Shown here: positions 1 to 11,708 of the stretch, in pieces
Position numbering within the stretch: the first letter of the stretch is position 1
Layout: the number at the start of each line of letters is the position of its first letter
Assembly: GCF_900101475.1 (NCBI RefSeq)
Contig: NZ_FMZV01000016.1
Span: 1 to 64,000 of the forward strand
DNA from: Ruegeria marina
Lineage (GTDB): Bacteria; Pseudomonadota; Alphaproteobacteria; Rhodobacterales; Rhodobacteraceae
DNA: 64,000 bases
Reading direction: 5' to 3'
Program-made: the position numbers and the translations under genes
Notes under the pieces: model-generated
Database searches by the model: none
What the model saw: only the letters and a program-made list of their open reading frames with translations
What the model was told of the DNA's origin: nothing

Positions 1-335
1 CGATTATACCGGGGCAGCGGCGCTGCTGGGCAGCTTGCCGAAAGCTGACTGGTTGCTCGCGGATCGCGGTTATGATGCCGATTGGTACCGAGAAGCATTG
101 AAAGACAAGGGGATAAAGGTCTGCATCCCGGGCCGAAAGTCCCGCAAGAAGACGGTCAAGTACGACAAGCGCCGATACAAACGCCGGAACCGGATCGAGG
201 TCATGTTTGGACGCCTGAAAGACTGGAGACGCGTCGCGACCCGATACGACCGATGCCCGGAAACCTTCTTCTCAGCCATCGCTCTCGCCGCAACCGTTTT
301 GTTCTGGCTATGAAAAAGAACGAGTCTGGAGCCTA
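1..335 (+). mobile_element. IS5-like insertion sequence, right end
   Basis: This is the right part of the insertion sequence that carries the transposase fragment. The likely terminal inverted repeat lies just after the transposase stop, around 322-335 (GAGTCTGGAGCCTA). The left end is outside the window, so the repeat cannot be matched and the exact boundary is a guess. Confidence 0.5.
2..313 (+). CDS. IS5-family transposase, C-terminal fragment (cut by window edge)
   Basis: The frame is open from the window edge to the stop at 311-313, so only the last ~103 residues are present. The fragment carries the end of the DDE domain: LLADRGYDAD holds the middle Asp, and NRIEVMFGRLKDWRR is the conserved C-terminal Y/N-R-E-x6-K-like block carrying the catalytic Glu. 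A C-terminus of the form ATVLFWL is typical of IS5-family (IS427-like group) enzymes. Members of that group often need a frameshift between two ORFs, which cannot be judged here because the 5' half is missing. The element would catalyse its own cut-and-paste movement. Confidence 0.85.
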   Translation, partial: DYTGAAALLGSLPKADWLLADRGYDADWYREALKDKGIKVCIPGRKSRKKTVKYDKRRYKRRNRIEVMFGRLKDWRRVATRYDRCPETFFSAIALAATVLFWL

Positions 336-1279: not shown

Positions 1280-2197
1280 TCACCTTTCGGGCGACTCTTC
1301 CCCCGGGACCGCAAGCGTCGACATGCTGGCCGAGACCTGCTCCAGAAATTGCGCCCCGATGGCCGAGATCGGGCGGCCACGTGCGGTCACGATGATGATA
1401 TCCAGCAGGATGCGCGGAACGAAACGGCGCAGCACATATCCCTGCTGCGGATCGGTCGCGACCGTGAACGGGTCGACCAGCGTGACCCCCAACCCCTGTT
1501 TCACCAGGTTCAGCGCATTTCGGAACAGATCGGTCTGGCAGCGGATGCGCAAGGTCGCACCCTCGTTGTGAAAGGCTTCGCGGACGCGCCGGGTGACCAT
1601 GTGGTCGGCGCCCATCACGATGAAGGACTGATCGTCCAGCAGAGAGGGCGTCAGCATCTCGTGCCTCGCCAGCGGGCTGTGTTCGGGCAGGGCGCAGAGG
1701 ATCTCGAAGGAAAACGGCTTGGCTTCCAGCCCGTCGTGGCGCAGGGGAAGCTCGCAGATGCCGATCTCGAACAGGCCCGCCATCACCCATTCCTGGATCT
1801 TGGCGGAGTATTGCGACTGAAAGGCCACCGTCAGGTTCGGCTTGCCGGCGGCGAAACGCGCGATCTCACCGGGCATGAAGCCGAAGGCCATCGCGTGATT
1901 GGTGGCCACCTGCAACTGCCCGGCCTTCTGGTTTTGCAGGTCGACCACCGCCTGGTTCACATGCACCAGCCCGCGCATCACGGTATCGATCTCGTCGTAA
2001 AGCACCATCGCCTCGGGTGTCGGCAGCAGCCGGCCACGGTTGCGTTCGAACAGCTTCAGCCGTGTGCGCCGTTCCAGTTGGGCCAGGAGGTTCGAGATCG
2101 CCGGCTGCGACACGCCCAGCAACTCGGCGGCGCCGGTTACGGTGCCGGTCTCGATGATGGCATGAAAGGCCTGATAGTGGCGGAAATACGAGGTCAT
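1280..2197 (-). CDS. LysR-family transcriptional regulator
   Basis: This 305-residue protein has the standard LysR length. The N-terminal winged helix-turn-helix (about residues 5-62, with the helix GAAELLGVSQPAISNLLAQL) is followed by a periplasmic-binding-protein-like effector domain (about 90-290). ATG at 2197 is preferred over an upstream TTG because the protein then starts directly before the HTH. The gene diverges from the enolase-superfamily gene at 2300, the usual layout for a LysR protein controlling its neighbour. The coinducer is probably the substrate or a product of that pathway. Confidence 0.92.
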   Translation of the reverse strand: MTSYFRHYQAFHAIIETGTVTGAAELLGVSQPAISNLLAQLERRTRLKLFERNRGRLLPTPEAMVLYDEIDTVMRGLVHVNQAVVDLQNQKAGQLQVATNHAMAFGFMPGEIARFAAGKPNLTVAFQSQYSAKIQEWVMAGLFEIGICELPLRHDGLEAKPFSFEILCALPEHSPLARHEMLTPSLLDDQSFIVMGADHMVTRRVREAFHNEGATLRIRCQTDLFRNALNLVKQGLGVTLVDPFTVATDPQQGYVLRRFVPRILLDIIIVTARGRPISAIGAQFLEQVSASMSTLAVPGEESPER

Positions 2198-2206
2198 ATT
2201 ACCCAA

Positions 2207-2299: not shown

Positions 2300-3427
2300 A
2301 TGAGCGCGCTTGACCAGAAAATCATTGGTTTCGATCTGTGGCAGCTTGCCTTGCCGGTGGTTTCCGCCCGGGATCATGGGATCGGACGAGTCGAAGGAGC
2401 CTGCGAGATTGTCGTCCTGCGCCTGACCGCCGAAGGCGGCGCCGAAGGGTTCGGCGAGGCGTCCCCCTGGTCCGTCTTCACCGGCACGCCCGAGGCAAGT
2501 CATGCCGCACTCGACCGGTACCTGCGGCCCCTGGTTCTGGGGCGCCGGGTCGGCGACCGCGCCCTGATCATGGAGCAGGCGGCCCAGGCCGTCGCCCATT
2601 GCACCGAGGCCAAGGCGGCGCTTGAGAGCGCGTTGCTCGACCTGATCGGACAGATCTCGGCTCTGCCGGTATGGGCGCTGCTGGGCGGCAAGTGTCGTGA
2701 CACCATTCCGCTCAGTTGTTCCATCGCCAATCCGGATTTCGATCAGGATATCGCCCTGATGGAACGTCTGCGGGACGATGGCGTCGGGTTGATCAAGCTC
2801 AAGACCGGATTCAGGGACCATGCTTTCGACATCATGCGACTGGAACGGATCGCCCGCGACTTTCCCGAATTCGGGGTGCGCGTGGACTACAATCAGGGTC
2901 TGGGCATCGAACAGGCGATCCCGCAGGTGCTGGATGTCGCCCGTTTCCGCCCCGACTTCATCGAGCAGCCGGTGCGGTTTCATCATTTCGACATGATGGC
3001 GCGGCTGCGCGGCCTGATCGACGTGCCGCTGCTGGCCGACGAAAGCGTGTTCGGCCCCGAGGATATGGTGCGCGCGGCGCGCGAGGGCATTTGCGATGGC
3101 GTTTCGGTCAAGATCATGAAATCCGGCGGCCTGTCACGCGGACAGACGGTGGCGCGCATCGCCGGGGCAAACGGGCTGATGGCCTATGGCGGCGACATGT
3201 TCGAAGCGGGGCTTGCGCATCTGGCCGGCACCCACATGATCGCCGCGACGCCCGAGATCACGCTGGGCTGCGAGTTTTACCAGGCCAGCTATTACCTGAA
3301 GGAGGATATCCTGGAGACTCCGTTCCAGGTTCGAAACGGGCAGGTCGTGGTGCCCGATGGCCCCGGACTGGGCGCGCGGCCTGATCTGGGCAGGCTCGAC
3401 CATTACGCGGTAAGGAAACCGGGATGA
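2300..3427 (+). CDS. Enolase-superfamily enzyme, MLE subgroup (cis-3-hydroxy-L-proline dehydratase-like)
   Basis: The 375-residue protein has the mandelate racemase/muconate lactonizing capping and barrel domains. Visible active-site residues follow the MLE-subgroup pattern: K166-x-K168 (LIKLKTGF), metal ligands D196, E222 (EQPV) and D247 (ADES), and a second-side lysine at K271 in VKIMKSGG. Such enzymes abstract an alpha-proton from a carboxylate substrate with Mg2+. The pairing with a DadA-like oxidoreductase, TRAP transporter and 5-oxoprolinase makes a cyclic amino acid substrate likely, hence cis-3-hydroxyproline dehydratase. Dipeptide epimerase or another cycloisomerase activity remains possible. 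A LysR gene diverges upstream; the winged-helix regulator converges downstream with an 11-bp gap. Confidence 0.8.
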
Positions 3428-3438
3428 CAGCGCCGCGT

Positions 3439-3954
3439 TCAATACGCCGTGGCGGCGCGGGCGGCCTGGTCGTACTGGCCCGACATCAGTCGCAGCATGG
3501 CCGAAAGACGGCTCATCTGGTCGGGCTCGATGCCCGCATCCTTCATCGCAGCCAGCAACAGGTCCTCGCGGATCTCGCGGTAGCGGTCGCAGGCCGCGCG
3601 GCCCTCGTCCGTGGTCTCGACTGTCTTTTCCTTGCCCAGCCGTCCTTCGGTGACCAGCCCCAGCTTGCTGAGCTTCTTGATCGCGTAGTTGACGGTATGG
3701 GTGTCCTCGACATTCAGCACCAGGCAGATGTCGGCCAGCTTCTTGGGGCGGTCGCGGTGCCGCACCGTGTGCAGCACCAGCACGTCCAGCGAAGACAGTT
3801 CGGGATAACCCGACGCCGCCATCGCCCGCACCGTCCAGCGGCCAAAGGCGTGGCCCGCGATGATCAGGCCGAATTCGAATTCGGAAACTTCCGGAAAGCT
3901 GCCCGCCGCCAGATGTGCCGAAGAGACTACCGGACCAAGATTGGAGTGTGACAT
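3439..3954 (-). CDS. MarR-like winged-helix transcriptional regulator
   Basis: This 171-residue protein has a MarR-type core. Helices around residues 50-80 (SSLDVLVLHTVRHRDRPKK) lead into a recognition region (IKKLSKLGLVTEGRLG) and a wing ending in TDEGRAACDRYREIRED. Family members bind palindromic operators as dimers and usually repress. It diverges from the FAD-oxidoreductase/TRAP/pxp genes, and a perfect 17-bp palindrome lies 30 bp upstream of its start, so it probably controls itself and that operon. No ribosome-binding site is obvious. Confidence 0.85.
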   Translation of the reverse strand: MSHSNLGPVVSSAHLAAGSFPEVSEFEFGLIIAGHAFGRWTVRAMAASGYPELSSLDVLVLHTVRHRDRPKKLADICLVLNVEDTHTVNYAIKKLSKLGLVTEGRLGKEKTVETTDEGRAACDRYREIREDLLLAAMKDAGIEPDQMSRLSAMLRLMSGQYDQAARAATAY

Positions 3955-3983
3955 GGGGCAAGACTACCTGACGATAAAAACAT

Positions 3984-4000
3984 GTCAACAATTTGTTGAC
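3984..4000. promoter_or_regulatory. Perfect palindrome, likely operator of the MarR-like regulator
   Basis: GTCAACAA-T-TTGTTGAC has 8-bp arms around a single central base. It sits in the 120-bp divergent region, 30 bp from the regulator start and 75 bp from the FAD-oxidoreductase start. Size and symmetry are typical for MarR dimers. A half-site-like ATTTGTCA follows at 4002-4009. Confidence 0.7.
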
Positions 4001-4074
4001 GATTTGTCATTGTGTGTCATGCTTCCACGAATGGAATCGGTCAGCCGCTCTTTGGGTAAGGGTCGGGAGGCGAA

Positions 4075-5340
4075 ATGAACGAGACCGCAAAGACCATCGC
4101 TATCATCGGCGCCGGCATTGTCGGCGTATCAACCGCGATCTGGCTGCAACGCGACGGCCACCGGGTGATCCTGATCGACCGCGCCGGCCCGGCCGAGGGC
4201 ACATCCTTTGGCAACGGCGGCGTGCTGGCCTCTTGCTCGATCGTGCCGGTGACAGGGCCGGGCCTGATCGCCAAGGCGCCGGGCATGCTGTTCAGCCCGA
4301 ACCAGCCCCTGTTCCTGCGGTGGGGGTATCTGCCGCGCCTGGCGCCGTGGTTGATCAAGTATCTTGGCCATGCCAATGCCGCCGCCGCCACCCACACTGC
4401 GACAGCGATGGCGCAAATCGTCGGAGACAGCCTGGCCGACCACCTTGCGCTGGCGCAGGGGACGGGGGCCGAGAAATGGGTGGTGCCGTCGGATTACCTG
4501 TTCATCTACAACGACCGTGCCCATTACCATGACGATGCCTTTGGCTGGGGTCTGCGGCGGCAGAACGGGTTTGTCTGGGACGAGATGGAGGGAGCCGAGT
4601 TCCGCGCCTATGACCCGGTGTTCTCAGACGATCTGCGGTTTGCCGTGCGGCTCAAGGATCATGGCCGCATCGCCGATCCGGGCCAGTACGTCAAGGATCT
4701 TGCCGCCCATGTGGTGGCGCAGGGCGGGCAGCTGATCACTGCGGCGGTCGAGGATATCGTGCGCGAGAATGGCCGCGTCACCGGCGTGCGGGCCGGGGGG
4801 CAGACCATCGCCTGTGATGCCGCCGTAGTGGCCACCGGCGTCTGGTCCGGGCCGCTGGCCAAGAAACTGGGCCTCGACGTGCCGCTCGAATCCGAGCGCG
4901 GTTATCATATCGAATTCTGGAACCCGAATTTCATGCCGAAATCGCCGGTCATGGTGGCAGCGCGCAAATTTGTCGCCACTCCGATGGAGGGACGTTTGCG
5001 GCTGGCCGGTGTCGTCGAGTTCGGAGGTCTTGACAACGGCCCGTCCAAGGCGCCGATCGACCTGCTCAAACGCAGCGCCGCCGCTGTTTTCCCAGGCCTC
5101 AAGGCCGATGAGGTGACCGAATGGATGGGGCATCGCCCCGCGCCTGCGGATTCGATTCCGGTGATCGGCGAGTTGCCGCATATCAAAGGCGCCTATACCG
5201 GCTTTGGCCACCATCACGTGGGGCTGACCGGCGGGCCGAAAACAGGCCGCATCCTGGCTCAACTGATCTCGGGTCGACAACCGAATGTTGACCTGACCGC
5301 CTATTCCCCGGCACGCTATGCGAAGTCGGGGCAACAATAA
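4075..5340 (+). CDS. DadA-like FAD-dependent amino acid oxidoreductase
   Basis: The 421-residue protein belongs to the DAO fold. An N-terminal Rossmann dinucleotide site (IAIIGAGIVGVSTA, residues ~8-21) ends in the ribose-binding acid LIDR. The C-terminal FAD/substrate region contains GYHIEF, GHRPAPADSIPVIG and GFGHHHVGLTGGPKTG. DadA-type enzymes oxidise D-amino acids or cyclic imino acids such as D-proline and pass electrons to the respiratory chain. It heads the run with the TRAP genes (37-bp gap to dctP) behind the MarR-type palindrome. The substrate is inferred only; sarcosine or hydroxyproline oxidation is an alternative. Confidence 0.85.
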   Translation: MNETAKTIAIIGAGIVGVSTAIWLQRDGHRVILIDRAGPAEGTSFGNGGVLASCSIVPVTGPGLIAKAPGMLFSPNQPLFLRWGYLPRLAPWLIKYLGHANAAAATHTATAMAQIVGDSLADHLALAQGTGAEKWVVPSDYLFIYNDRAHYHDDAFGWGLRRQNGFVWDEMEGAEFRAYDPVFSDDLRFAVRLKDHGRIADPGQYVKDLAAHVVAQGGQLITAAVEDIVRENGRVTGVRAGGQTIACDAAVVATGVWSGPLAKKLGLDVPLESERGYHIEFWNPNFMPKSPVMVAARKFVATPMEGRLRLAGVVEFGGLDNGPSKAPIDLLKRSAAAVFPGLKADEVTEWMGHRPAPADSIPVIGELPHIKGAYTGFGHHHVGLTGGPKTGRILAQLISGRQPNVDLTAYSPARYAKSGQQ

Positions 5341-5377
5341 GAAACCAAACCGATCCAACAAAAACAGGGAGACTGAA

Positions 5378-6355
5378 ATGCTGAAAATGAAACACCTGCT
5401 GGCGGCAACCGCCCTGACTGCGGCCTCGGCCCTGTCGGCGAGCGCCGAAACCTGGGACATGCCGCTGGCCTATGCGGCGTCCAACTTCCATTCCGAAAAC
5501 GCGGCTGAGTTTGCCACCTGCGTCAAGGACAAGACCGGCGGCGCGATGGAGATCGTGACCCATCCGTCCGGCTCGCTGTTCGCCGGCAATGACATCAAGC
5601 GCGCGATCCAGACCGGCCAGGCGCCGATTGGCGAACGCCTGATCTCGGCGCACCAGAACGAGAACCCGATCTTCGGTATCGATTCGATCCCGTTCCTGGC
5701 TACCTCCTTTGGCGCGCACGAGCAGCTGTGGGAAGTCGCAGGTCCAAAAGTGGCCGAGATCCTGGCACAGCAGAACCTCGTTTATCTCTACTCGGTGCCC
5801 TGGCCGCCGCAGGGCCTCTATTTCAAGAAGCCGGTCGAAAGCGTGGCCGACATGAAGGGGATCAAGTTCCGCTCCTATTCGACCGCAACCGCCCGCATGG
5901 CGGAACTGACCGGCATGTTGCCGGTGCAGGTCGAAGCGGCCGAACTCAGCCAGGCGCTGGCAACCGGCGTGGCCGAAAGCTTCATCTCGTCGGGTGCGAC
6001 CGGCTATGACCGCAAGGTCTGGGAACACCTGACCCATTTCTACGAAGTGGATGCCTGGTTGCCGCGCAACATCGTGTTTGCCAACAAGGATGCCTGGGAT
6101 GGGCTGAGTGTCGAAACCCAGTCGGCGATGCGGGATTGTGCCGCCACCGCCAAGGCCAACGGTCTGCAACGGTCCAAGGACTATACCCAGTTCACGCTGG
6201 ACGGTCTGAAAGCTGGCGGCATGACCGTGGGTCCGGCTGGTGCCAACCTCGTCGCCGAACTGAAGGCGATCGGCGAGACCATGACCGCCGAGTGGCTGGA
6301 AAGCGCGGGCGATGAAGGCCGTGCTGTCGTCGACGCGTACAAGGCGAAAAATTAA
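5378..6355 (+). CDS. TRAP transporter solute-binding protein (DctP family)
   Basis: This 325-residue periplasmic protein starts at the ATG at 5378, preceded by AGGGAGACTGAA. An upstream in-frame ATG at 5318 lies inside the previous gene and would spoil the signal peptide. The first ~23 residues are a Sec signal ending in SASA-ETW. The region GIKFRSYSTATARM carries the conserved Arg that contacts the substrate carboxylate in DctP proteins, followed by GTGVAESFISS-like ligand-site text. It delivers an organic acid or amino acid to the DctQ/DctM permease just downstream. A strong hairpin follows the stop. Confidence 0.92.
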   Translation: MLKMKHLLAATALTAASALSASAETWDMPLAYAASNFHSENAAEFATCVKDKTGGAMEIVTHPSGSLFAGNDIKRAIQTGQAPIGERLISAHQNENPIFGIDSIPFLATSFGAHEQLWEVAGPKVAEILAQQNLVYLYSVPWPPQGLYFKKPVESVADMKGIKFRSYSTATARMAELTGMLPVQVEAAELSQALATGVAESFISSGATGYDRKVWEHLTHFYEVDAWLPRNIVFANKDAWDGLSVETQSAMRDCAATAKANGLQRSKDYTQFTLDGLKAGGMTVGPAGANLVAELKAIGETMTAEWLESAGDEGRAVVDAYKAKN

Positions 6356-6366
6356 CCTCCAACGGG

Positions 6367-6391
6367 CGGAGGCCGCATCCCGCGGCCTCCG
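6367..6391 (+). promoter_or_regulatory. Intercistronic stem-loop between TRAP dctP and dctQ
   Basis: CGGAGGCCGC and GCGGCCTCCG form a perfect 10-bp stem around ATCCC, starting 11 bp after the dctP stop. There is no T-run, so it is probably an mRNA-stabilising or partial attenuating element that keeps binding-protein mRNA more abundant than permease mRNA. Confidence 0.6.
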
Positions 6392-6420
6392 ATCTGCTGA
6401 AACCACAAGGGGGCAGGGGC

Positions 6421-6942
6421 ATGGGTTCTTTGCGCCGCGGGCTTGACGCGCTCTACACAGCCGGGGGTGTCGTCGCCGCTTTCTTCACAATCACGATCCT
6501 GGCGATCATCGTGCTACAGATGCTGGCACGCTGGACCGGGTCCACCTTTCCGGGCGCGGCTGACTATGCCGGCTATTGCATGGCGGGCGCGTCGTTCTTT
6601 GCCTTTGCCTATGCGCTCAACCATGGCGCCCATATCCGCGTGTCGCTGTTGCTGAGCAAGATGGGCCGCTGGCGGTACTGGGGTGAGCTGTGGTGCTTCG
6701 CCGTCGGGACTGCCGCCTCTACCTTCCTGGCGCGCTACGCCATCAAGGTGACGGTGGAAAGCCACCGCTTCAAGGACGTGAGCCAGGGCCAGGACGCAAC
6801 CCCGCTATGGATTCCGCAGTCCATCATGGCGATCGGCGCGGTGCTGCTGGCGATCTGCTTCTGGGATCACCTGATCCGTCTGATCTTCACCGGAAACCAC
6901 GGGATCCGCGAAGATCTCGTGGACCAGAGCCACGCGGAGTAG
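6421..6942 (+). CDS. TRAP transporter small permease (DctQ family)
   Basis: The protein has 173 residues and four predicted membrane segments (about 15-40, 52-70, 88-110 and 135-160), with the family-typical short charged C-terminus. DctQ proteins bind the large permease and are needed for Na+-coupled uptake. It is preceded by AAGGGGGCAGGGGC, a good ribosome-binding site. It lies between dctP and dctM, 4 bp before the dctM start. Confidence 0.92.
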   Translation: MGSLRRGLDALYTAGGVVAAFFTITILAIIVLQMLARWTGSTFPGAADYAGYCMAGASFFAFAYALNHGAHIRVSLLLSKMGRWRYWGELWCFAVGTAASTFLARYAIKVTVESHRFKDVSQGQDATPLWIPQSIMAIGAVLLAICFWDHLIRLIFTGNHGIREDLVDQSHAE

Positions 6943-6946
6943 GGAC

Positions 6947-8257
6947 ATGGAACAACTGATCCCGATTGCACTGTTTCTCTTCGTCCTGTTCCTGCTTCTG
7001 GGGTCCGGCGTCTGGGTTGGCCTCGCGCTGCTGGGCGTCGCCTATGTGGGGATGGAACTCTTCACCTCGCGCCCAACGGGCGACGCGATGATCACGGTGA
7101 TCTGGCGCTCGGCCTCCAGCTGGACGCTGACTGCCCTGCCGCTCTTCATCTGGATGGGCGAGATACTCTATCGAACGCGATTATCCGAGGACATGTTCCG
7201 CGGCCTGTCGCCCTGGATGGCGCGTTTGCCGGGCGGGCTGGTACATACCAACATCGTGGGTTGCACGGTCTTTGCCGCGGTCTCGGGCTCCTCGGCGGCG
7301 ACGTTGACCACCGTGGGCAAGATGTCGATCCCCGAGTTGCGCAAGCGGCAATACCCCGAGCGCATGGTGATCGGCACGCTGGCGGGCGCGGCCACGCTGG
7401 GGCTGATGATCCCGCCGTCGCTGACGCTGATTGTCTACGGCGTCACCATCAATGAATCCATCACCAAGCTGTTCTTCGCGGGCATCCTGCCCGGGCTGGT
7501 GCTGGCACTGATGTTCATGACCTATGTGGCGATCTACTCCAGGGTGTCGTCGAGCTGGAACCCTTCGCCCGAACCGCGGATGAGTTTCTGGGAAAAGGTG
7601 CAGAACTCGCGCTTCCTGATCCCGGTCATGCTGCTGATCATCGTCGTGATCGGCTCCATGTACCTGGGCTTTGCCACTGCGACAGAAGCGGCGGCCTTCG
7701 GCGTGATTGGCGCGCTGGTGCTGGCGGCGGGGCAGGGGTCGCTCAACTGGGGGACCTTTACCGAAAGCCTGATGGGCGCGGTGCGCACGTCGGCGATGAT
7801 CGCGCTGATCCTCGCGGGCGCGGCCTTCCTCTCGCTCAGCATGGGGTTCACCGGCCTGCCACGCGGCCTGGCCGACCTGATCGCCAGTTTCGAACTCACC
7901 CGGTTCGAACTCCTCATGGTGCTCTTGGTGTTCTACATCATCCTGGGCTGTTTCCTCGACGGTATCTCCTCGGTGGTGCTGACCATGGCGGTGGTCGAGC
8001 CGATGATCCGCGAGGCGGGGATCGACCTGATCTGGTTCGGCATTTTCATCGTGGTGGTGGTCGAGATGGCGCAGATCACGCCGCCGATCGGGTTCAACCT
8101 GTTCGTGCTGCAAGGCATGACCGAGCATCAGATGGGGTTCATCGCCCGCGCCGCGATCCCGATGTTCCTGATCATGGTGTTGATGGTCTTCGTGCTCATC
8201 GCCTTCCCGGACCTGGCCACATGGCTACCCGAGAACATCAGGTCCCGACCCAGCTGA
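6947..8257 (+). CDS. TRAP transporter large permease (DctM family)
   Basis: This 436-residue protein is hydrophobic throughout with about 12 membrane segments. It shows DctM landmarks such as GCTVFAAVSGSSAAT, IPELRKRQYPERMVIG and GLMIPPSLTLIVYG in the first repeat, and GCFLDGISSVVLTMAVVEP and ITPPIGFNLFVLQG in the second. It is the inner-membrane Na+-coupled translocation subunit working with the two proteins encoded upstream. Confidence 0.95.
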   Translation: MEQLIPIALFLFVLFLLLGSGVWVGLALLGVAYVGMELFTSRPTGDAMITVIWRSASSWTLTALPLFIWMGEILYRTRLSEDMFRGLSPWMARLPGGLVHTNIVGCTVFAAVSGSSAATLTTVGKMSIPELRKRQYPERMVIGTLAGAATLGLMIPPSLTLIVYGVTINESITKLFFAGILPGLVLALMFMTYVAIYSRVSSSWNPSPEPRMSFWEKVQNSRFLIPVMLLIIVVIGSMYLGFATATEAAAFGVIGALVLAAGQGSLNWGTFTESLMGAVRTSAMIALILAGAAFLSLSMGFTGLPRGLADLIASFELTRFELLMVLLVFYIILGCFLDGISSVVLTMAVVEPMIREAGIDLIWFGIFIVVVVEMAQITPPIGFNLFVLQGMTEHQMGFIARAAIPMFLIMVLMVFVLIAFPDLATWLPENIRSRPS

Positions 8258-8284
8258 CGATAGTGGCCCAAGGGGAACGGCAGG

Positions 8285-9205
8285 ATGCAACAGGCGCTGG
8301 CCTTCATCGCCCGGCATGGCAAGCTCGGCCTCATCGCGGGTCTGGTTGCCGGGCTTGCCCTGCCGGGGGTGGCGGCCGCTATGCGGCCGTGGATTCCGGA
8401 ACTGGTGGCCTTCCTGCTGTTCCTCACCGCCTTTCGCATCGGCCCGGTCGATGCGGCGGGCAAGCTCAACGATCTGACCCGCACCGCCCGCGCGGTGCTG
8501 GTCCTGCAACTGGCGCTGCCGCTGGGATTCCTGCTGCTGCTCAAGCTCTTCGGCCTGCCGATGACGCCGCTGGCACTGGCCGCCGCGCTGGTGCTGGCGG
8601 CCCCGTCGGTCACCGGCTCGGCGAATTTCACCATCCTGCTGGGTCATGACCCGGCCCCGGCGCTGCGGCTTCTGATCCTTGGCACCGCGCTGTTGCCGCT
8701 GACGTCGATCCCGGTGTTCTGGCTGCTGCCCGAGTTCGGCGACCTGGCCGCTGTTCTGGGCGCCGCGCTGCGGTTGCTGGGGGTGATAATGGCCGCTGCG
8801 GGCTTGGGTTTTGTCCTGCGTCACTGGGGCGCGCGTCATCTCTCGGATCTCAACCGCCGGGCTGTCGACGGGCTGACGGTCATTGCGCTCGCCGTGGTCG
8901 TCGTGGCGCTGATGTCGGCGATCCGGCCCGCGCTGGCCGAGCGTCCGGCCGAACTGGCCTTCTGGCTGGCCGCGGCCTTCGGGATCAATTTCGGCTCGCA
9001 GCTCCTGTGTTACACTGTGCTGCGCGCCACCGGACGGCCCGACCCGGTGCCGACCTCGATCGTGGCGGGCAACCGCAACTTCGCGCTGTTTCTCGTGGCC
9101 CTGCCACCCGAGGCGACCGACCCGCTCCTGATCTTCCTGGGATGCTACCAGTTTCCCATGTACCTGACCCCGACCCTGATGCGAAGGCGCTATGACCTGC
9201 TCTGA
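8285..9205 (+). CDS. BASS-like integral membrane transporter
   Basis: The 306-residue protein has about nine or ten membrane helices and resembles the bile acid:sodium symporter/arsenite permease fold. Support includes APSVTGSANFTILLG in the middle and a second-half helix with IVAGNRNFALFLVALP, matching the family's crossover GNRN-type motif. The start at 8285 has GGGGAACGGCAGG upstream. It sits between a full TRAP system and pxpB and overlaps pxpB by 14 bp, so it is co-expressed. It may move a related substrate or export a product. The family call is moderate; the substrate is unknown. Confidence 0.7.
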   Translation: MQQALAFIARHGKLGLIAGLVAGLALPGVAAAMRPWIPELVAFLLFLTAFRIGPVDAAGKLNDLTRTARAVLVLQLALPLGFLLLLKLFGLPMTPLALAAALVLAAPSVTGSANFTILLGHDPAPALRLLILGTALLPLTSIPVFWLLPEFGDLAAVLGAALRLLGVIMAAAGLGFVLRHWGARHLSDLNRRAVDGLTVIALAVVVVALMSAIRPALAERPAELAFWLAAAFGINFGSQLLCYTVLRATGRPDPVPTSIVAGNRNFALFLVALPPEATDPLLIFLGCYQFPMYLTPTLMRRRYDLL

Positions 9206-9941
9206 TCCCTTTCCCCTGATCCGCACCGTCGGCCTCGATGGCATGCTCGTCACTTTTGCCGACACCATGACCGAGCCGTCGAACCGCGCAGCGCTGGCCT
9301 TTCGCGGCGCGCTGCATGAGGCCGGGTGGGAGGGCGTGGTGGAAAGCTCGACTTCGCTTGCGTCGGCCTATCTGCGCTTCGATCCGCTGCGCCTGAGCCA
9401 TGCAGAGCTGCGGGAACGCCTTGCCGCCCTGCTGGCCGAGCGTGACTGGTATGCCGCGCCGCTGCCGTCGGGCCGCAGGTTGTGGCGGGTGCCCACGGTC
9501 TACGGCACCGATCTCGCCCCGCAACTCGAAGATGCCGCCGCCGCCGCCGGTCTGGACCCGGACGAGGCGGTGCGCCGCCTGAGCCAGTCCCGCGTGCGGG
9601 TGCTAACCATCGGCTTTGCGCCCGGCCAGCCCTATCTTGGCCCGCTTGCGCCCGAGTTCGACATACCCCGCCTGCAACAGCTGACCCCGATGGTGCCCGA
9701 GGGCGCGCTGGTCTGCGCCATTCGCCAGCTCATCGTCTTTGCCGGGCCCACGCCCACCGGCTGGCGCCATATCGGCCAGACCGCGTTCCGCTGCTTCCGT
9801 CCGGGGATGGAGCCGACATTCGCGCTCAATCCCGGCGACGAGATGATATTCGAACCCATCGAACGCGCCGAGCTGGACCATATCCGCGCCCATGACGAGG
9901 ACGGCACCGGCGGCGCCACGGTCGAGGAGATCGCGGCATGA
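9192..9941 (+). CDS. pxpB: 5-oxoprolinase subunit B (KipI-like)
   Basis: The 249-residue protein matches the KipI/PxpB family in length and in the conserved loop IGFAPGQPYLG (around residues 138-148), the family's GFxPGFxYLG signature. Position supports this: it overlaps pxpC by 4 bp (ATGA) and pxpA follows. PxpA, PxpB and PxpC together form the ATP-dependent prokaryotic 5-oxoprolinase converting 5-oxo-L-proline to glutamate. The homologue KipI in Bacillus also inhibits a sporulation kinase, which is not expected here. Confidence 0.92.
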   Translation: MTCSDPFPLIRTVGLDGMLVTFADTMTEPSNRAALAFRGALHEAGWEGVVESSTSLASAYLRFDPLRLSHAELRERLAALLAERDWYAAPLPSGRRLWRVPTVYGTDLAPQLEDAAAAAGLDPDEAVRRLSQSRVRVLTIGFAPGQPYLGPLAPEFDIPRLQQLTPMVPEGALVCAIRQLIVFAGPTPTGWRHIGQTAFRCFRPGMEPTFALNPGDEMIFEPIERAELDHIRAHDEDGTGGATVEEIAA

Positions 9942-10936
9942 GCCTGATCGTCCGCCGCATCGGCCCGGCCTGCACGATCCAGGACCAGGGGCGCGAAGGG
10001 TACCTGGACCAGGGCCTGTCCCGCTCGGGCGCGGCCGACCTGCGCGCGCTCTACGAAGGGGCCGCGCTGCTCCGCCAGACACCCGACCTCGCCGCGTTGG
10101 AAATGGCCGGCATGGGCGGTGAGTTCGAGGCCACCGCCCCCCTGCGCATCGCGCTGACCGGCGCGCCGATGCAGGCCAGCATCGATGGCAGCCCGGTCGC
10201 CTGGAACGCCTCGCACGCGCTGGCCAAGGGGCAGCGGCTGAGCATCGGCGCGGTGCTGCGCGGCGGCTATGGCTACCTCCACCTGGGCGGCGGTATCGCG
10301 ACCGAGCCCTTCCTCGGCTCGCGCTCGACCCATCTGGCGGCCCGCGTCGGCCGCGCTGTGGCGGTGGGCGATGCGCTGGAGGCCGGCCCGGACAAGGGCG
10401 AGGCGGGCATGAAGATCGCCGCTGACGACCGGTTCGGCGGCGGCACCTTGCGGGTGGTAGCCAGTTTCCAGACTGCGCTTTTCGATGCTGAAACCCTGGC
10501 CCGGTTCGAGGCGACCGGGTTCCGCCGTGGCCCGCGCGCCAATCGGATGGGCATGCAGCTCGACAGCGACGGGCCGGGCTTTGCCGCCAAGGGTCAGCTC
10601 AACATCCTGTCCGAGGTGATCTCTCCCGGCGACATCCAGATGACCGGCACCGGCAACCCGTTCATCCTGCTGCCCGAATGCCAGACCACCGGCGGCTATC
10701 CCCGCATCGCGACCGTGCTGCCCTGCGACTTGCCGCGCGCGGCGCAGACACCGCCGGGCGGTGCGGTGCGCTTTCATTTCGTGCCGCTCGACGAGGCGGT
10801 CGCCCTGCACGCCGCCTGGCTCAAGGATCTCGGCCGGTTGCCCACCCGCGTCGAGCCGCTGGTGCGGGACCCGGATGACATTCCAGACCTTCTGTCCTAC
10901 CAACTGATCGGCGGCGTCGTGTCCGCCAACGACTGA
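9938..10936 (+). CDS. pxpC: 5-oxoprolinase subunit C (KipA-like, biotin-dependent carboxylase family)
   Basis: The 332-residue protein opens with the KipA signature QDQGREGY followed by GLSRSGAAD (residues ~14-35). It also has the conserved GGYGYLHLGGGI and the late block QMTGTGNPFILLPECQTTGG. It is the partner of PxpB in the 5-oxoprolinase complex. Start and stop overlap or nearly touch the neighbours (4 bp with pxpB, 10-bp gap to pxpA), so the three genes are translationally linked. Confidence 0.93.
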   Translation: MSLIVRRIGPACTIQDQGREGYLDQGLSRSGAADLRALYEGAALLRQTPDLAALEMAGMGGEFEATAPLRIALTGAPMQASIDGSPVAWNASHALAKGQRLSIGAVLRGGYGYLHLGGGIATEPFLGSRSTHLAARVGRAVAVGDALEAGPDKGEAGMKIAADDRFGGGTLRVVASFQTALFDAETLARFEATGFRRGPRANRMGMQLDSDGPGFAAKGQLNILSEVISPGDIQMTGTGNPFILLPECQTTGGYPRIATVLPCDLPRAAQTPPGGAVRFHFVPLDEAVALHAAWLKDLGRLPTRVEPLVRDPDDIPDLLSYQLIGGVVSAND

Positions 10937-10946
10937 GGAGCATACC

Positions 10947-11708
10947 ATGACCCGAGTGGACCTGAACGCCGACATGGGCGAAAGCTTTGGCCCCTGGAAA
11001 ATGGGTGATGACGACAGTCTGCTGAAGATCATCACCTCGGCCAATATCGCCTGTGGCTTTCACGCCGGCGACCCGGATGTGATGGCGAAAACCATGGCGC
11101 TTGCGGCGGAAAACGGGGTGGGCATCGGTGCGCATCCCGGGTTTCCCGACCTGCAAGGTTTCGGTCGGCGCAACATGAAGGTGCCGCATGCCTCTCTGCG
11201 CAACATGGTGCGCTACCAACTGGGCGCGGCGCTGGGCATGGCCCGCGCGGTGGGGGCCGAAGTTCGGCATCTGAAATTGCACGGGGCGCTTGCCAACATG
11301 TGCTCGGTCGATCAGGACATGGCGCGCGCCTGTTACCAGGGCGCGCTGGACGTGGACCCGGACATCATCATCATGGTGCTGGCGGTCACCAAACAGGAAC
11401 AAGCTGCGCGCGAACTGGGCTGCAAATGGGTCGGCGAGATCTTTGCCGACCGCGCCTATAACGACGATGGAACGCTGGTCGACCGGTCACTGCCCGGCGC
11501 GGTGATCCATGATCCAGAGGTGGCCGGGCCGCGCATTCTCGAGATGGTAAGCGCCGGCGCCATCATCACCGAAAGCGGCAGGCACCTGGAAACCTCGATC
11601 GACACGATCTGCCTGCACGGCGACGGGCCGACCGCCGTCCAGATCGCCCGCTCTGTCCGCAGCTGTCTCGAAGAGGGCGGGGTCGAGGTAAAGGTTTTCG
11701 AAAGATAA
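10947..11708 (+). CDS. pxpA: 5-oxoprolinase subunit A (LamB/YcsF family)
   Basis: This 253-residue protein begins with the LamB/YcsF signature DLNADMGESFGPW and continues with the family blocks SANIACGFHAGDP, GIGAHPGFPDLQGFGRR and LKLHGALANM. The start has TGAGGAGC upstream. It completes the PxpABC set that hydrolyses 5-oxoproline to glutamate, the likely last step of the catabolic locus beginning at 2300. It is the final gene of the run; a hairpin lies 48 bp downstream. Confidence 0.95.
   Translation: MTRVDLNADMGESFGPWKMGDDDSLLKIITSANIACGFHAGDPDVMAKTMALAAENGVGIGAHPGFPDLQGFGRRNMKVPHASLRNMVRYQLGAALGMARAVGAEVRHLKLHGALANMCSVDQDMARACYQGALDVDPDIIIMVLAVTKQEQAARELGCKWVGEIFADRAYNDDGTLVDRSLPGAVIHDPEVAGPRILEMVSAGAIITESGRHLETSIDTICLHGDGPTAVQIARSVRSCLEEGGVEVKVFER

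What the first reader, a model, noticed from the sequence alone, without database searches (positions are those of the whole stretch)
2300..11708. Putative cyclic amino acid catabolic locus: enolase-type enzyme, DadA-like oxidase, TRAP, BASS-like permease and PxpBCA
An MLE-subgroup enzyme, an FAD amino-acid oxidoreductase, two transport systems and the full 5-oxoprolinase sit together under LysR and MarR-type regulators. 5-Oxoprolinase turns 5-oxoproline into glutamate. The other enzymes act on proline-like rings (hydroxyproline or D-amino acids). The combination suggests a route feeding a proline-, hydroxyproline- or pyroglutamate-like compound to glutamate, but no single known pathway uses exactly this set.
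Basis: partly seen in the sequence, partly recalled or inferred. Interest (0 to 1): 0.55.

Follow-up and report, generated by a model that had tools for sequence, protein, structure and literature searches.

The report
Pyroglutamate uptake and breakdown gene cluster
A marine Ruegeria-type bacterium carries a gene cluster that probably imports pyroglutamate (a ring-shaped form of glutamate) and turns it into glutamate, with an unassigned enolase-family enzyme that may flip the molecule between its mirror-image forms; the parts are known kinds but the combination is not.

Summary
The best-supported substrate is 5-oxoproline (pyroglutamate). The TRAP binding protein belongs to the pyroglutamate-binding DctP subfamily (57% identical to 6wgm, "specific for pyroglutamate"). 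Its relatives lie near a 5-oxoprolinase in 9 of 20 loci, against 0 of 40 control DctP loci. The enolase-family enzyme (ENO) keeps six expected catalytic residues in 100 of 100 sequences and misses the cut-offs for muconate cycloisomerase, cis-3-hydroxyproline dehydratase and DgcA. It is followed by DadA in 78 of 78 assessable close loci, but 8 of 11 distant ENO loci show no DadA. PxpA is in 27 of 27 ENO genomes and 110 of 171 others. A palindrome, probably the MarR operator, precedes dadA in 14 of 14 MarR loci. My reading: a 5-oxoproline catabolic locus handling both enantiomers, with ENO a possible 5-oxoproline racemase and DadA a possible D-glutamate dehydrogenase. Both substrates are inferred, not shown. 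Hydroxyproline or proline betaine is not supported. New variant of a known kind.

The parts
1280..2206 (-). LysR-family regulator, divergent from ENO
   Evidence: Pfam HTH_1 and LysR_substrate over cut-off; present in 73 of 80 named ENO loci
2300..3427 (+). ENO: MLE-subgroup enolase-superfamily enzyme; proposed 5-oxoproline (pyroglutamate) racemase
   Evidence: Pfam MR_MLE_N/C; K166/K168, D196, E222, D247, K271 in 100 of 100 sequences; best solved relatives 3i6e, 3i6t, 3my9
3439..3954 (-). MarR-type regulator (Pfam HTH_27)
   Evidence: relatives in 8 of 20 DctP-subfamily loci against 0 of 40 control DctP loci
3984..4000 (.). 17-bp palindrome GTCAACA-ATT-TGTTGAC in the MarR/dadA divergent promoter; proposed MarR operator
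   Evidence: at most 2 mismatches upstream of dadA in 14 of 14 MarR-bearing named loci
4075..5340 (+). DadA-like FAD oxidoreductase; proposed D-amino-acid (D-glutamate) dehydrogenase
   Evidence: Pfam DAO 194 bits; NCBIfam D-amino acid dehydrogenase 198.5 bits, under its cut-off of 383; follows ENO in 78 of 78 assessable named loci
5378..6355 (+). DctP: TRAP solute-binding protein, pyroglutamate-binding subfamily
6421..6942 (+). DctQ: TRAP small permease
   Evidence: Pfam DctQ
6947..8257 (+). DctM: TRAP large permease
   Evidence: Pfam DctM; NCBIfam dctM over cut-off
8285..9205 (+). BASS-fold permease, no Pfam hit; role unknown
   Evidence: no family; AlphaFold2 model pLDDT 91.4; ASBT fold Z 26.1; found in 64 of 80 named loci
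9192..9941 (+). PxpB-type subunit (overlaps the BASS gene by 14 nt)
   Evidence: Pfam CT_C_D 170 bits; TIGR00370 81.3 bits, under its cut-off of 145.55
9938..10936 (+). PxpC-type subunit (4-nt overlap with PxpB)
   Evidence: Pfam CT_A_B 220 bits; NF045499 160.2 bits, under its cut-off of 500
10947..11708 (+). PxpA: 5-oxoprolinase subunit, the only PF03746 match in the genome
   Evidence: NF003814 359 bits, over its cut-off of 226

Best explanation
This is a 5-oxoproline (pyroglutamate) uptake and catabolism locus that handles both mirror-image forms. The TRAP system imports 5-oxoproline. PxpBCA opens the lactam with ATP to give glutamate. ENO removes and returns the proton at the carbon bearing the carboxylate and so interconverts D- and L-5-oxoproline, acting as a racemase. 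DadA oxidises the D-amino acid on the D-branch, most simply D-glutamate, to 2-oxoglutarate and ammonia. MarR represses the dadA-to-pxpA operon through the 17-bp palindrome, and LysR controls ENO. Supported here by sequence and context: TRAP ligand class, operon, candidate operator, ENO-DadA coupling in the TRAP-type loci, catalytic residues. Inferred: the substrates of ENO and DadA, the stereochemistry used by PxpBCA, the regulation, and the role of the BASS permease. Rough odds: TRAP carries 5-oxoproline 0.85; PxpBCA hydrolyses it 0.75; ENO is a racemase/epimerase of any substrate 0.7; ENO's substrate is 5-oxoproline 0.4; DadA acts on D-glutamate 0.4.
For: Binding protein: E 4.5e-112, 3.1e-82 and 2.8e-77 to 6wgm, 2pfz and 2pfy; titles 'specific for pyroglutamate' and 'binding pyroglutamic acid'; the Bordetella ligand is confirmed in passages of PMC12344293, PMC13274462 (DctP7 KD 0.3 uM) and PMC5812351. 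Subfamily members away from ENO lie near OPLAH or PxpABC in 9 of 20 fetched loci against 0 of 40 control DctP loci (Fisher p 1.1e-5); annotated examples on Acidovorax and Azospirillum plasmids. ENO: six catalytic residues and a W57/V59-G62 loop in 100 of 100. The ENO-dadA gap is at most 113 nt (between tblastn hits) in 64 of 64 named loci without MarR. A DadA relative also follows a 45-49% ENO behind an amino-acid ABC transporter in Tistrella, Thioclava and Shinella plasmids, the three of ten ENO plasmid records of that type that I opened. In G074, G313 and G228, which are not among the ENO matches, DadA and DctPQM are kept with an Asp/Glu/hydantoin-racemase-family gene, in G074 together with BASS and PxpBCA. 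PxpA in 27 of 27 ENO genomes against 110 of 171 others (p 2.6e-5). The window's genome lacks D-glutamate cyclase, so a D-5-oxoproline route would need another enzyme.
Against: A racemase is not needed to use L-5-oxoproline, and DadA should not act on 5-oxoproline itself (no free amine), so the two need an unproven link through D-glutamate. Of 11 distant (46-52%) ENO loci fetched from genomes, 8 show no DadA and only one (L123) has it as the next gene, so the pairing is not a property of the whole ENO family. PxpBCA is adjacent in only 15 of 80 named loci and its presence changes only 3 times on the ENO tree, so locus-level statistics are few independent events. PxpB and PxpC miss their equivalog cut-offs. 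Many loci carry both ENO and the Asp/Glu-racemase-family gene (62 of 80), so the two are not simply interchangeable. A thiamine-diphosphate enzyme tracks ENO more strongly than PxpA does (21 of 27 against 15 of 171, p 9e-14), and a simple 5-oxoproline-to-glutamate route does not explain it. Eleven of 27 ENO genomes do have D-glutamate cyclase.
Confidence: 0.5

Rival explanations
1. ENO and DadA form a racemase plus D-amino-acid-dehydrogenase module (like DadX-DadA) for a free amino or imino acid other than 5-oxoproline. The 2-oxo acid made goes to the thiamine-diphosphate enzyme. PxpBCA joined the operon only because the transporter also carries 5-oxoproline.
For: ENO-DadA coupling in 78 of 78 assessable named loci. 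The pair also occurs behind amino-acid ABC transporters in three plasmids opened, with a thiamine-diphosphate enzyme in two of them. That enzyme tracks ENO at genome level (21 of 27 against 15 of 171). PxpBCA is local in only 15 of 80.
Against: The TRAP binding protein sits in the pyroglutamate subfamily whether or not PxpBCA is adjacent: the 19 other aligned DctP rows, some with and some without PxpBCA, are 65-79% identical to the window's. PxpBCA, BASS, the TRAP, DadA and the thiamine enzyme lie in one run in G203 (L187). PxpA is in 27 of 27 ENO genomes.
Confidence: 0.3
2. ENO is a known MLE-subgroup activity: muconate cycloisomerase, dipeptide epimerase, N-acylamino-acid racemase or cis-3-hydroxyproline dehydratase.
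For: Best curated family is muconate/chloromuconate cycloisomerase (214.6 bits), and solved relatives are labelled muconate cycloisomerase. One distant ENO locus (L113) has an M20-type hydrolase-like ORF next to the thiamine enzyme and ENO (by eye), which would fit an N-acylamino-acid substrate.
Against: Curated cut-offs are missed: 214.6 against 334.95; cis-3-hydroxyproline dehydratase 96.8 against 500; DgcA 68.4 against 400; L-Ala-D/L-Glu epimerase 93.1 against 500. I recognised no catechol genes next to ENO in the loci whose neighbours I listed.
Confidence: 0.1
3. L-5-oxoproline is deaminated through a D-branch. ENO turns L-5-oxoproline into D-5-oxoproline, PxpBCA or D-glutamate cyclase opens it to D-glutamate, DadA feeds electrons to respiration and yields 2-oxoglutarate, and the thiamine-diphosphate enzyme decarboxylates that to succinate semialdehyde.
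For: Uses every enzyme. In Shinella the ENO-DadA-thiamine-enzyme run is followed by an SDR and then, on the other strand, a GMC oxidoreductase and an annotated succinate-semialdehyde dehydrogenase. 2-Oxoglutarate decarboxylase is a known thiamine-diphosphate activity in cyanobacteria (PMC10418658, start of abstract and passages).
Against: Energetically odd beside ordinary glutamate deamination. The window's genome has no D-glutamate cyclase, so PxpBCA would have to accept the D-form, which was not tested. Resemblance of the thiamine enzyme to 2-oxoglutarate decarboxylases was not tested.
Confidence: 0.15

Closest known systems
pxpTABC of Corynebacterium glutamicum (growth on 5-oxo-L-proline; PMC13274462, part of abstract and passages)
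   Same: Dedicated 5-oxoproline transporter plus PxpABC in one regulated cluster; product glutamate
   Different: APC-type transporter and GntR regulator; the words 'enolase' and 'racemase' do not occur in its main text
Bordetella DctP6/DctP7 TRAP receptors with a eukaryotic-type 5-oxoprolinase gene nearby (Rucktooa 2007, known here only through passages of citing papers)
   Same: Same binding-protein subfamily; a 5-oxoprolinase gene in the vicinity
   Different: OPLAH-type rather than PxpBCA-type enzyme; no ENO-DadA pair mentioned in the passages read
DgcN-DgcA D-glutamate pathway (NCBIfam names DgcA an N-acetyl-D-Glu racemase; PMC12363236 passages on dgcN; enzymology otherwise recalled)
   Same: Enolase-superfamily racemase acting on an N-acylated glutamate; 5-oxoproline is an internal N-acyl glutamate
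   Different: ENO is far below the DgcA cut-off (68.4 against 400); a DgcN partner was not searched for
DadX-DadA and hydroxyproline 2-epimerase/D-hydroxyproline oxidase pairs (recalled)
   Same: Racemase or epimerase beside a FAD D-amino-acid dehydrogenase
   Different: Unrelated racemase folds (recalled); different transporter; no lactam hydrolase

Membership tests
Pyroglutamate-binding DctP (TRAP) subfamily | Homology to DctP6, DctP7 and 6wgm over the whole chain | tested here: met
   E 4.5e-112, 3.1e-82, 2.8e-77; profile E 3.2e-132, 6.6e-99, 4.4e-86, the only three hits at 1e-20; Z 37.1-37.5 against at most 32.5 for the other TRAP proteins listed
Pyroglutamate-binding DctP (TRAP) subfamily | Carboxylate-binding arginine of DctP proteins | tested here: met
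   R165 invariant in 20 of 20 rows and aligned with Arg in 6wgm, 2pfz and 2pfy; that this is the equivalent of SiaP Arg-147 (PMC4646407 passage) is my reading
Pyroglutamate-binding DctP (TRAP) subfamily | Binds pyroglutamate | not testable with these tools
   needs a binding assay
PxpABC 5-oxoprolinase | PxpA family cut-off | tested here: met
   NF003814 359.1 against 226
PxpABC 5-oxoprolinase | PxpB and PxpC equivalog cut-offs | tested here: not met
   TIGR00370 81.3 against 145.55; NF045499 160.2 against 500; Pfam CT_C_D and CT_A_B well over cut-off. Called PxpABC-type only
PxpABC 5-oxoprolinase | ATP-dependent hydrolysis of 5-oxoproline | not testable with these tools
   needs an enzyme assay
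Enolase superfamily, MLE subgroup | KxK, three metal ligands and the second Lys (positions from recall of the subgroup) | tested here: met
   K166, K168, D196, E222, D247, K271 in 100 of 100
Muconate cycloisomerase (TIGR02534) | Curated cut-off | tested here: not met
   214.6 against 334.95
cis-3-hydroxy-L-proline dehydratase (NF043002) | Curated cut-off | tested here: not met
   96.8 against 500
N-acetyl-D-Glu racemase DgcA (NF042940) | Curated cut-off | tested here: not met
   68.4 against 400
D-amino acid dehydrogenase DadA (NF001933) | Curated cut-off | tested here: not met
   198.5 against 383; Pfam DAO met, so DadA-like only
Bile acid:sodium symporter (BASS) fold | ASBT-like fold | tested here: met
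   3zuy Z 26.1, 299 residues, rmsd 3.6
Bile acid:sodium symporter (BASS) fold | Pfam sequence match | tested here: not met
   no Pfam or NCBIfam family at E 0.001

The most novel reading that the evidence does not exclude
ENO is a 5-oxoproline (pyroglutamate) racemase, a function of the enolase superfamily not found in print in my searches. With DadA, an Asp/Glu-racemase-family protein and a thiamine-diphosphate enzyme elsewhere in the genome, it forms a pathway that lets marine Rhodobacterales burn both enantiomers of 5-oxoproline.
Probability: 0.35. Interest if true: 0.65.

Novelty: new variant of a known kind. Interest (0 to 1): 0.48.

Why it matters
5-Oxo-D-proline is made from D-glutamate by D-glutamate cyclase and is excreted by humans in larger amounts than the L-form (PMC5339696, abstract and passages), yet I found no named racemase for it: 0 papers with any of six such terms in the library searched. 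If ENO is that enzyme, it gives a function to solved structures that carry only a muconate label (3i6e, 3i6t), suggests how marine bacteria recycle lactam derived from D-glutamate, and supplies a racemase for DL-pyroglutamate. Short of that, the cluster is a clear candidate for TRAP-type 5-oxoproline use with a testable operator.

Tried and rejected
Hydroxyproline, D-proline, proline betaine: cis-3-hydroxyproline dehydratase cut-off missed; binding protein falls with pyroglutamate receptors. Not formally excluded for ENO and DadA.

Muconate cycloisomerase: cut-off missed; no catechol genes recognised in the neighbours listed.

Literature. No paper holds two of the four terms '3I6E', '3I6T', '3MY9', 'enolase superfamily' (a paper with only one of them would be missed). 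No paper joins pyroglutamate with Ruegeria pomeroyi. The racemase/epimerase term search gave 0. An earlier, broader search found 31 papers and listed 20; in those 20 every match was to '5-oxo-D-proline'. Rucktooa 2007, Niehaus 2017 and one paper looked up by DOI (10.1021/bi501388y) are not held, so what I say of the first comes from citing papers. The library is openly licensed papers only.

ENO always pairs with DadA: rejected for the family as a whole. Among the 11 distant ENO loci L113-L123, DadA is the next gene in L123, is in the same locus in L122, lies 3.7 kb away at 36% in L119, and is not found in the other 8.

Replacement of the Asp/Glu-racemase module by PxpBCA: within the 80 loci the two look mutually exclusive (1 of 15 PxpA loci against 61 of 65 others carry c6), but PxpA status changes only 3 times on the ENO tree and independent pairs number 2, and the window's own genome keeps the module on another contig. 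So this is a change of linkage, not loss, and the Fisher values inside the 80 loci are pseudoreplicated. The family-wide tests (198 genomes, 197 genera) are less so but not tree-corrected. Absence calls there rest on the best 4 to 9 first-look candidates scored per genome.

MarR operator in distant OPLAH loci: with 3 mismatches allowed the control loci hit in 27 of 40, so only the 2-mismatch result near dadA is claimed. One of 64 assessable loci without MarR also had a 2-mismatch match near dadA.

Choice of neighbourhood sample: of 54 genomes with a DctP relative, 20 loci were fetched, chosen by hand down the ranking, leaving out ENO-type loci. Controls were rows 1-45 of the table without rows 16, 37, 38, 40 and 44 (some overlapped others; one was simply not taken), from 18 of the same 20 genomes. 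Two control stretches (L161, L173) were cut short by me so as not to touch subfamily loci, and several end at contig ends: 11 of 40 controls but 3 of 20 test stretches are shorter than 19,001 bases. This lowers the control's chance of showing a neighbour somewhat.

Plasmids: of 52 records with a DctP match I opened four through DctP hits: Acidovorax and Azospirillum show a 5-oxoprolinase, Thermus and Sulfitobacter do not.

Structure search listings cover only families that Foldseek ranks highest; absence from them was not used as evidence.

Full report
WHAT IS THERE. Order: LysR 2206-1280(-); ENO 2300-3427(+); MarR-type 3954-3439(-); DadA-like 4075-5340(+); DctP 5378-6355; DctQ 6421-6942; DctM 6947-8257; a permease 8285-9205; PxpB-type 9192-9941; PxpC-type 9938-10936; PxpA 10947-11708. 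From dadA to pxpA all genes are on the + strand with gaps of at most 65 nt or overlaps (BASS/PxpB 14 nt, PxpB/PxpC 4 nt), so one operon is likely. The permease has no Pfam or NCBIfam hit, but its AlphaFold2 model (pLDDT 91.4) has the bile-acid-symporter fold (3zuy, Z 26.1, rmsd 3.6, 299 residues, 17% identity). PxpA is the only PF03746 match in the genome.

THE TRANSPORTER. The DctP sequence finds 6wgm (E 4.5e-112), 2pfz (3.1e-82) and 2pfy (2.8e-77), then drops to 6e-19; a 20-row profile hits only those three at 1e-20. The PDB titles are 'TRAP solute binding protein specific for pyroglutamate' (6wgm, 57% identity) and 'extracytoplasmic solute receptor binding pyroglutamic acid' (DctP6 and DctP7, 41% and 40%). 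Passages in PMC12344293, PMC13274462 and PMC5812351 confirm pyroglutamate in both Bordetella proteins, a DctP7 KD of 0.3 uM, and a eukaryotic-type 5-oxoprolinase gene nearby. Rucktooa 2007 itself was not held.

A TEST OF THE TRANSPORTER READING. From 54 of 398 phylum genomes with a DctP relative I fetched 20 loci, none with ENO in the stretch; their DctP is 44-81% identical to the window's. A 5-oxoprolinase, OPLAH-type in 8 and PxpABC in 1, lies within the stretch in 9 of 20. In 40 loci around other DctP genes, from 18 of the same 20 genomes, it is 0 of 40 (Fisher p 1.1e-5). A relative of the window's MarR is in 8 of 20 against 0 of 40 (p 4.9e-5). Four annotated plasmids were opened through DctP hits, of 52 records: Acidovorax has two such binding proteins, the permeases, 'hydantoinase B/oxoprolinase' and a 'putative hydro-lyase' together; Azospirillum has the TRAP genes followed by PxpB and a biotin-dependent carboxyltransferase; Thermus and Sulfitobacter show no 5-oxoprolinase. 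Association with two kinds of 5-oxoprolinase is the best evidence here for the substrate.

ENO AND DadA. The sample leans on Ruegeria. Lysines on both faces fit a racemase or epimerase but also cycloisomerases. Curated cut-offs are missed for muconate cycloisomerase (214.6/334.95), cis-3-hydroxyproline dehydratase (96.8/500), L-Ala-D/L-Glu epimerase (93.1/500) and DgcA (68.4/400). Nearest solved relatives 3i6e, 3i6t and 3my9 carry a muconate label; my one search for papers on them found none. DadA is a DAO-family flavoprotein below the DadA cut-off (198.5/383).

CONSERVATION. A scan of the 84,980-species collection with a 10-row ENO profile gave 312 relatives, of which the best 80 loci were kept. 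Counts out of 80: DadA 78, DctP/Q/M 77, LysR 73, BASS 64, an Asp/Glu/hydantoin-racemase-family gene (c6; Pfam 37.9 bits against a cut-off of 31) 62, a thiamine-diphosphate enzyme (c7) 49 (45 at 55% identity or more), PxpABC 15, MarR 14. The two loci without DadA (L032, L068) end at ENO, so DadA is present in 78 of 78 where it can be seen. Without MarR the ENO-dadA gap between tblastn hits is 3-113 nt in 64 of 64; with MarR inserted it is 642-687 nt in 14 of 14. Further out the pairing loosens. In three genomes not among the ENO matches (G074, G313, G228) DadA and DctPQM are kept with c6 instead; in G313 that gene is only 31% identical to the c6 query. c6 has two cysteines in the places typical of that racemase family (sequence; motif from recall).

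GENOME-LEVEL LINKS. Among 198 family genomes ENO (E up to 1e-60) is in 27, 26 genera, five of them at 45-51% identity. PxpA is in 27 of 27 of these and 110 of 171 others (p 2.6e-5). D-glutamate cyclase is in 11 of 27 and 30 of 171 (p 0.01) but not in the window's genome. c7 is in 21 of 27 and 15 of 171 (p 9e-14). In the window's genome c6 and c7 sit on another contig (C21: 7710-8408(-), 9219-10907(+)) with a GntR-like ORF (by eye) between them. R. pomeroyi DSS-3 has the same trio annotated on its megaplasmid. Of 30 ENO genomes searched, 28 have c6 and 24 a c7 of 58% or more. In G203 the set c6 / c7-DadA-DctPQM-BASS-PxpBCA is one run, with ENO elsewhere. These tests are not tree-corrected. Within the 80 loci PxpA status changes only 3 times on the ENO tree, so p-values there should not be read as independent.

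REGULATION. Between MarR and dadA lies GTCAACA-ATT-TGTTGAC (3984-4000), the only exact match to that arm pair in the window. The site occurs within about 300 nt upstream of dadA in 14 of 14 MarR-bearing named loci (9 exact, 4 with one mismatch, 1 with two), in 1 of 64 assessable loci without MarR (two mismatches), and at two or fewer mismatches anywhere in 2 of 40 control loci. It is most likely the MarR operator of a divergent promoter; binding is untested.

MECHANISM. Import by TRAP; lactam opening by PxpBCA; ENO interconverting 5-oxoproline enantiomers; DadA oxidising a D-amino acid of the branch, D-glutamate the simplest. 5-Oxoproline is an internal N-acyl glutamate, and an enolase-superfamily enzyme that racemises N-acetyl-glutamate (DgcA) is known (NCBIfam name; enzymology recalled), so the proposed chemistry has a precedent. 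Weak points: DadA should not use the lactam itself; PxpB and PxpC are divergent; distant ENO relatives often lack DadA; c6 and c7 imply more chemistry than 5-oxoproline to glutamate. The rival that ENO and DadA serve another amino acid is therefore kept at 0.3.

NOVELTY AND VERDICT. 5-Oxoproline catabolism and TRAP uptake of it are known; the enolase-DadA-TRAP-BASS-PxpBCA set under LysR and MarR is a new variant. No paper in the library searched names a 5-oxoproline or pyroglutamate racemase or epimerase; that covers only the openly licensed papers held. Interest 0.48; if ENO proves to be that racemase, 0.65.

Noticed in passing
G000:C21:7710-10907 (same coordinates in L181): Asp/Glu/hydantoin-racemase-family gene, GntR-like ORF and acetolactate-synthase-like thiamine-diphosphate enzyme, unlinked to the window; the thiamine enzyme tracks ENO across genomes (21 of 27 against 15 of 171). 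Substrate unknown.
   Followed up: partly
L181 4550-7290 and R. pomeroyi megaplasmid L130 1404-5022: A xanthine-dehydrogenase-type molybdenum enzyme (annotated in L130, recognised by eye in L181) lies next to that trio in both genomes.
   Followed up: no
L134, L135, L136 (Tistrella, Thioclava, Shinella plasmids): A 45-49% ENO relative and a DadA relative follow an amino-acid ABC transporter; a thiamine enzyme in two, and an annotated succinate-semialdehyde dehydrogenase further along on the other strand in Shinella.
   Followed up: partly
G005:C10, G091:C54, G169:C1, G212:C16: D-glutamate cyclase (PF07286) lies within 6 kb of PxpA in at least these four genomes (the PxpA table was cut short), pointing to 5-oxo-D-proline as a regular metabolite beside 5-oxoprolinase.
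   Followed up: no
L132 279-8692 (Leisingera aquaemixtae plasmid): Racemase-family gene, DadA relative, TAXI-type TRAP transporter and LysR beside the same thiamine enzyme: the module with a different transporter and no ENO hit in the stretch.
   Followed up: no
L185 16-1939: By eye, a D-threonine-aldolase/D-serine-deaminase-like ORF and an ornithine-cyclodeaminase-like ORF lie a few kb from the c6/c7 pair in one genome.
   Followed up: no
window 8285-9205: BASS-fold permease with no Pfam match; its counterpart is annotated only as 'hypothetical protein' in a Ruegeria plasmid. It overlaps pxpB.
   Followed up: yes
window 35-313 and 1115-1204: A transposase-like short ORF (judged by eye) and a tRNA-Ser(GCT) gene lie just upstream of the locus.
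   Followed up: no
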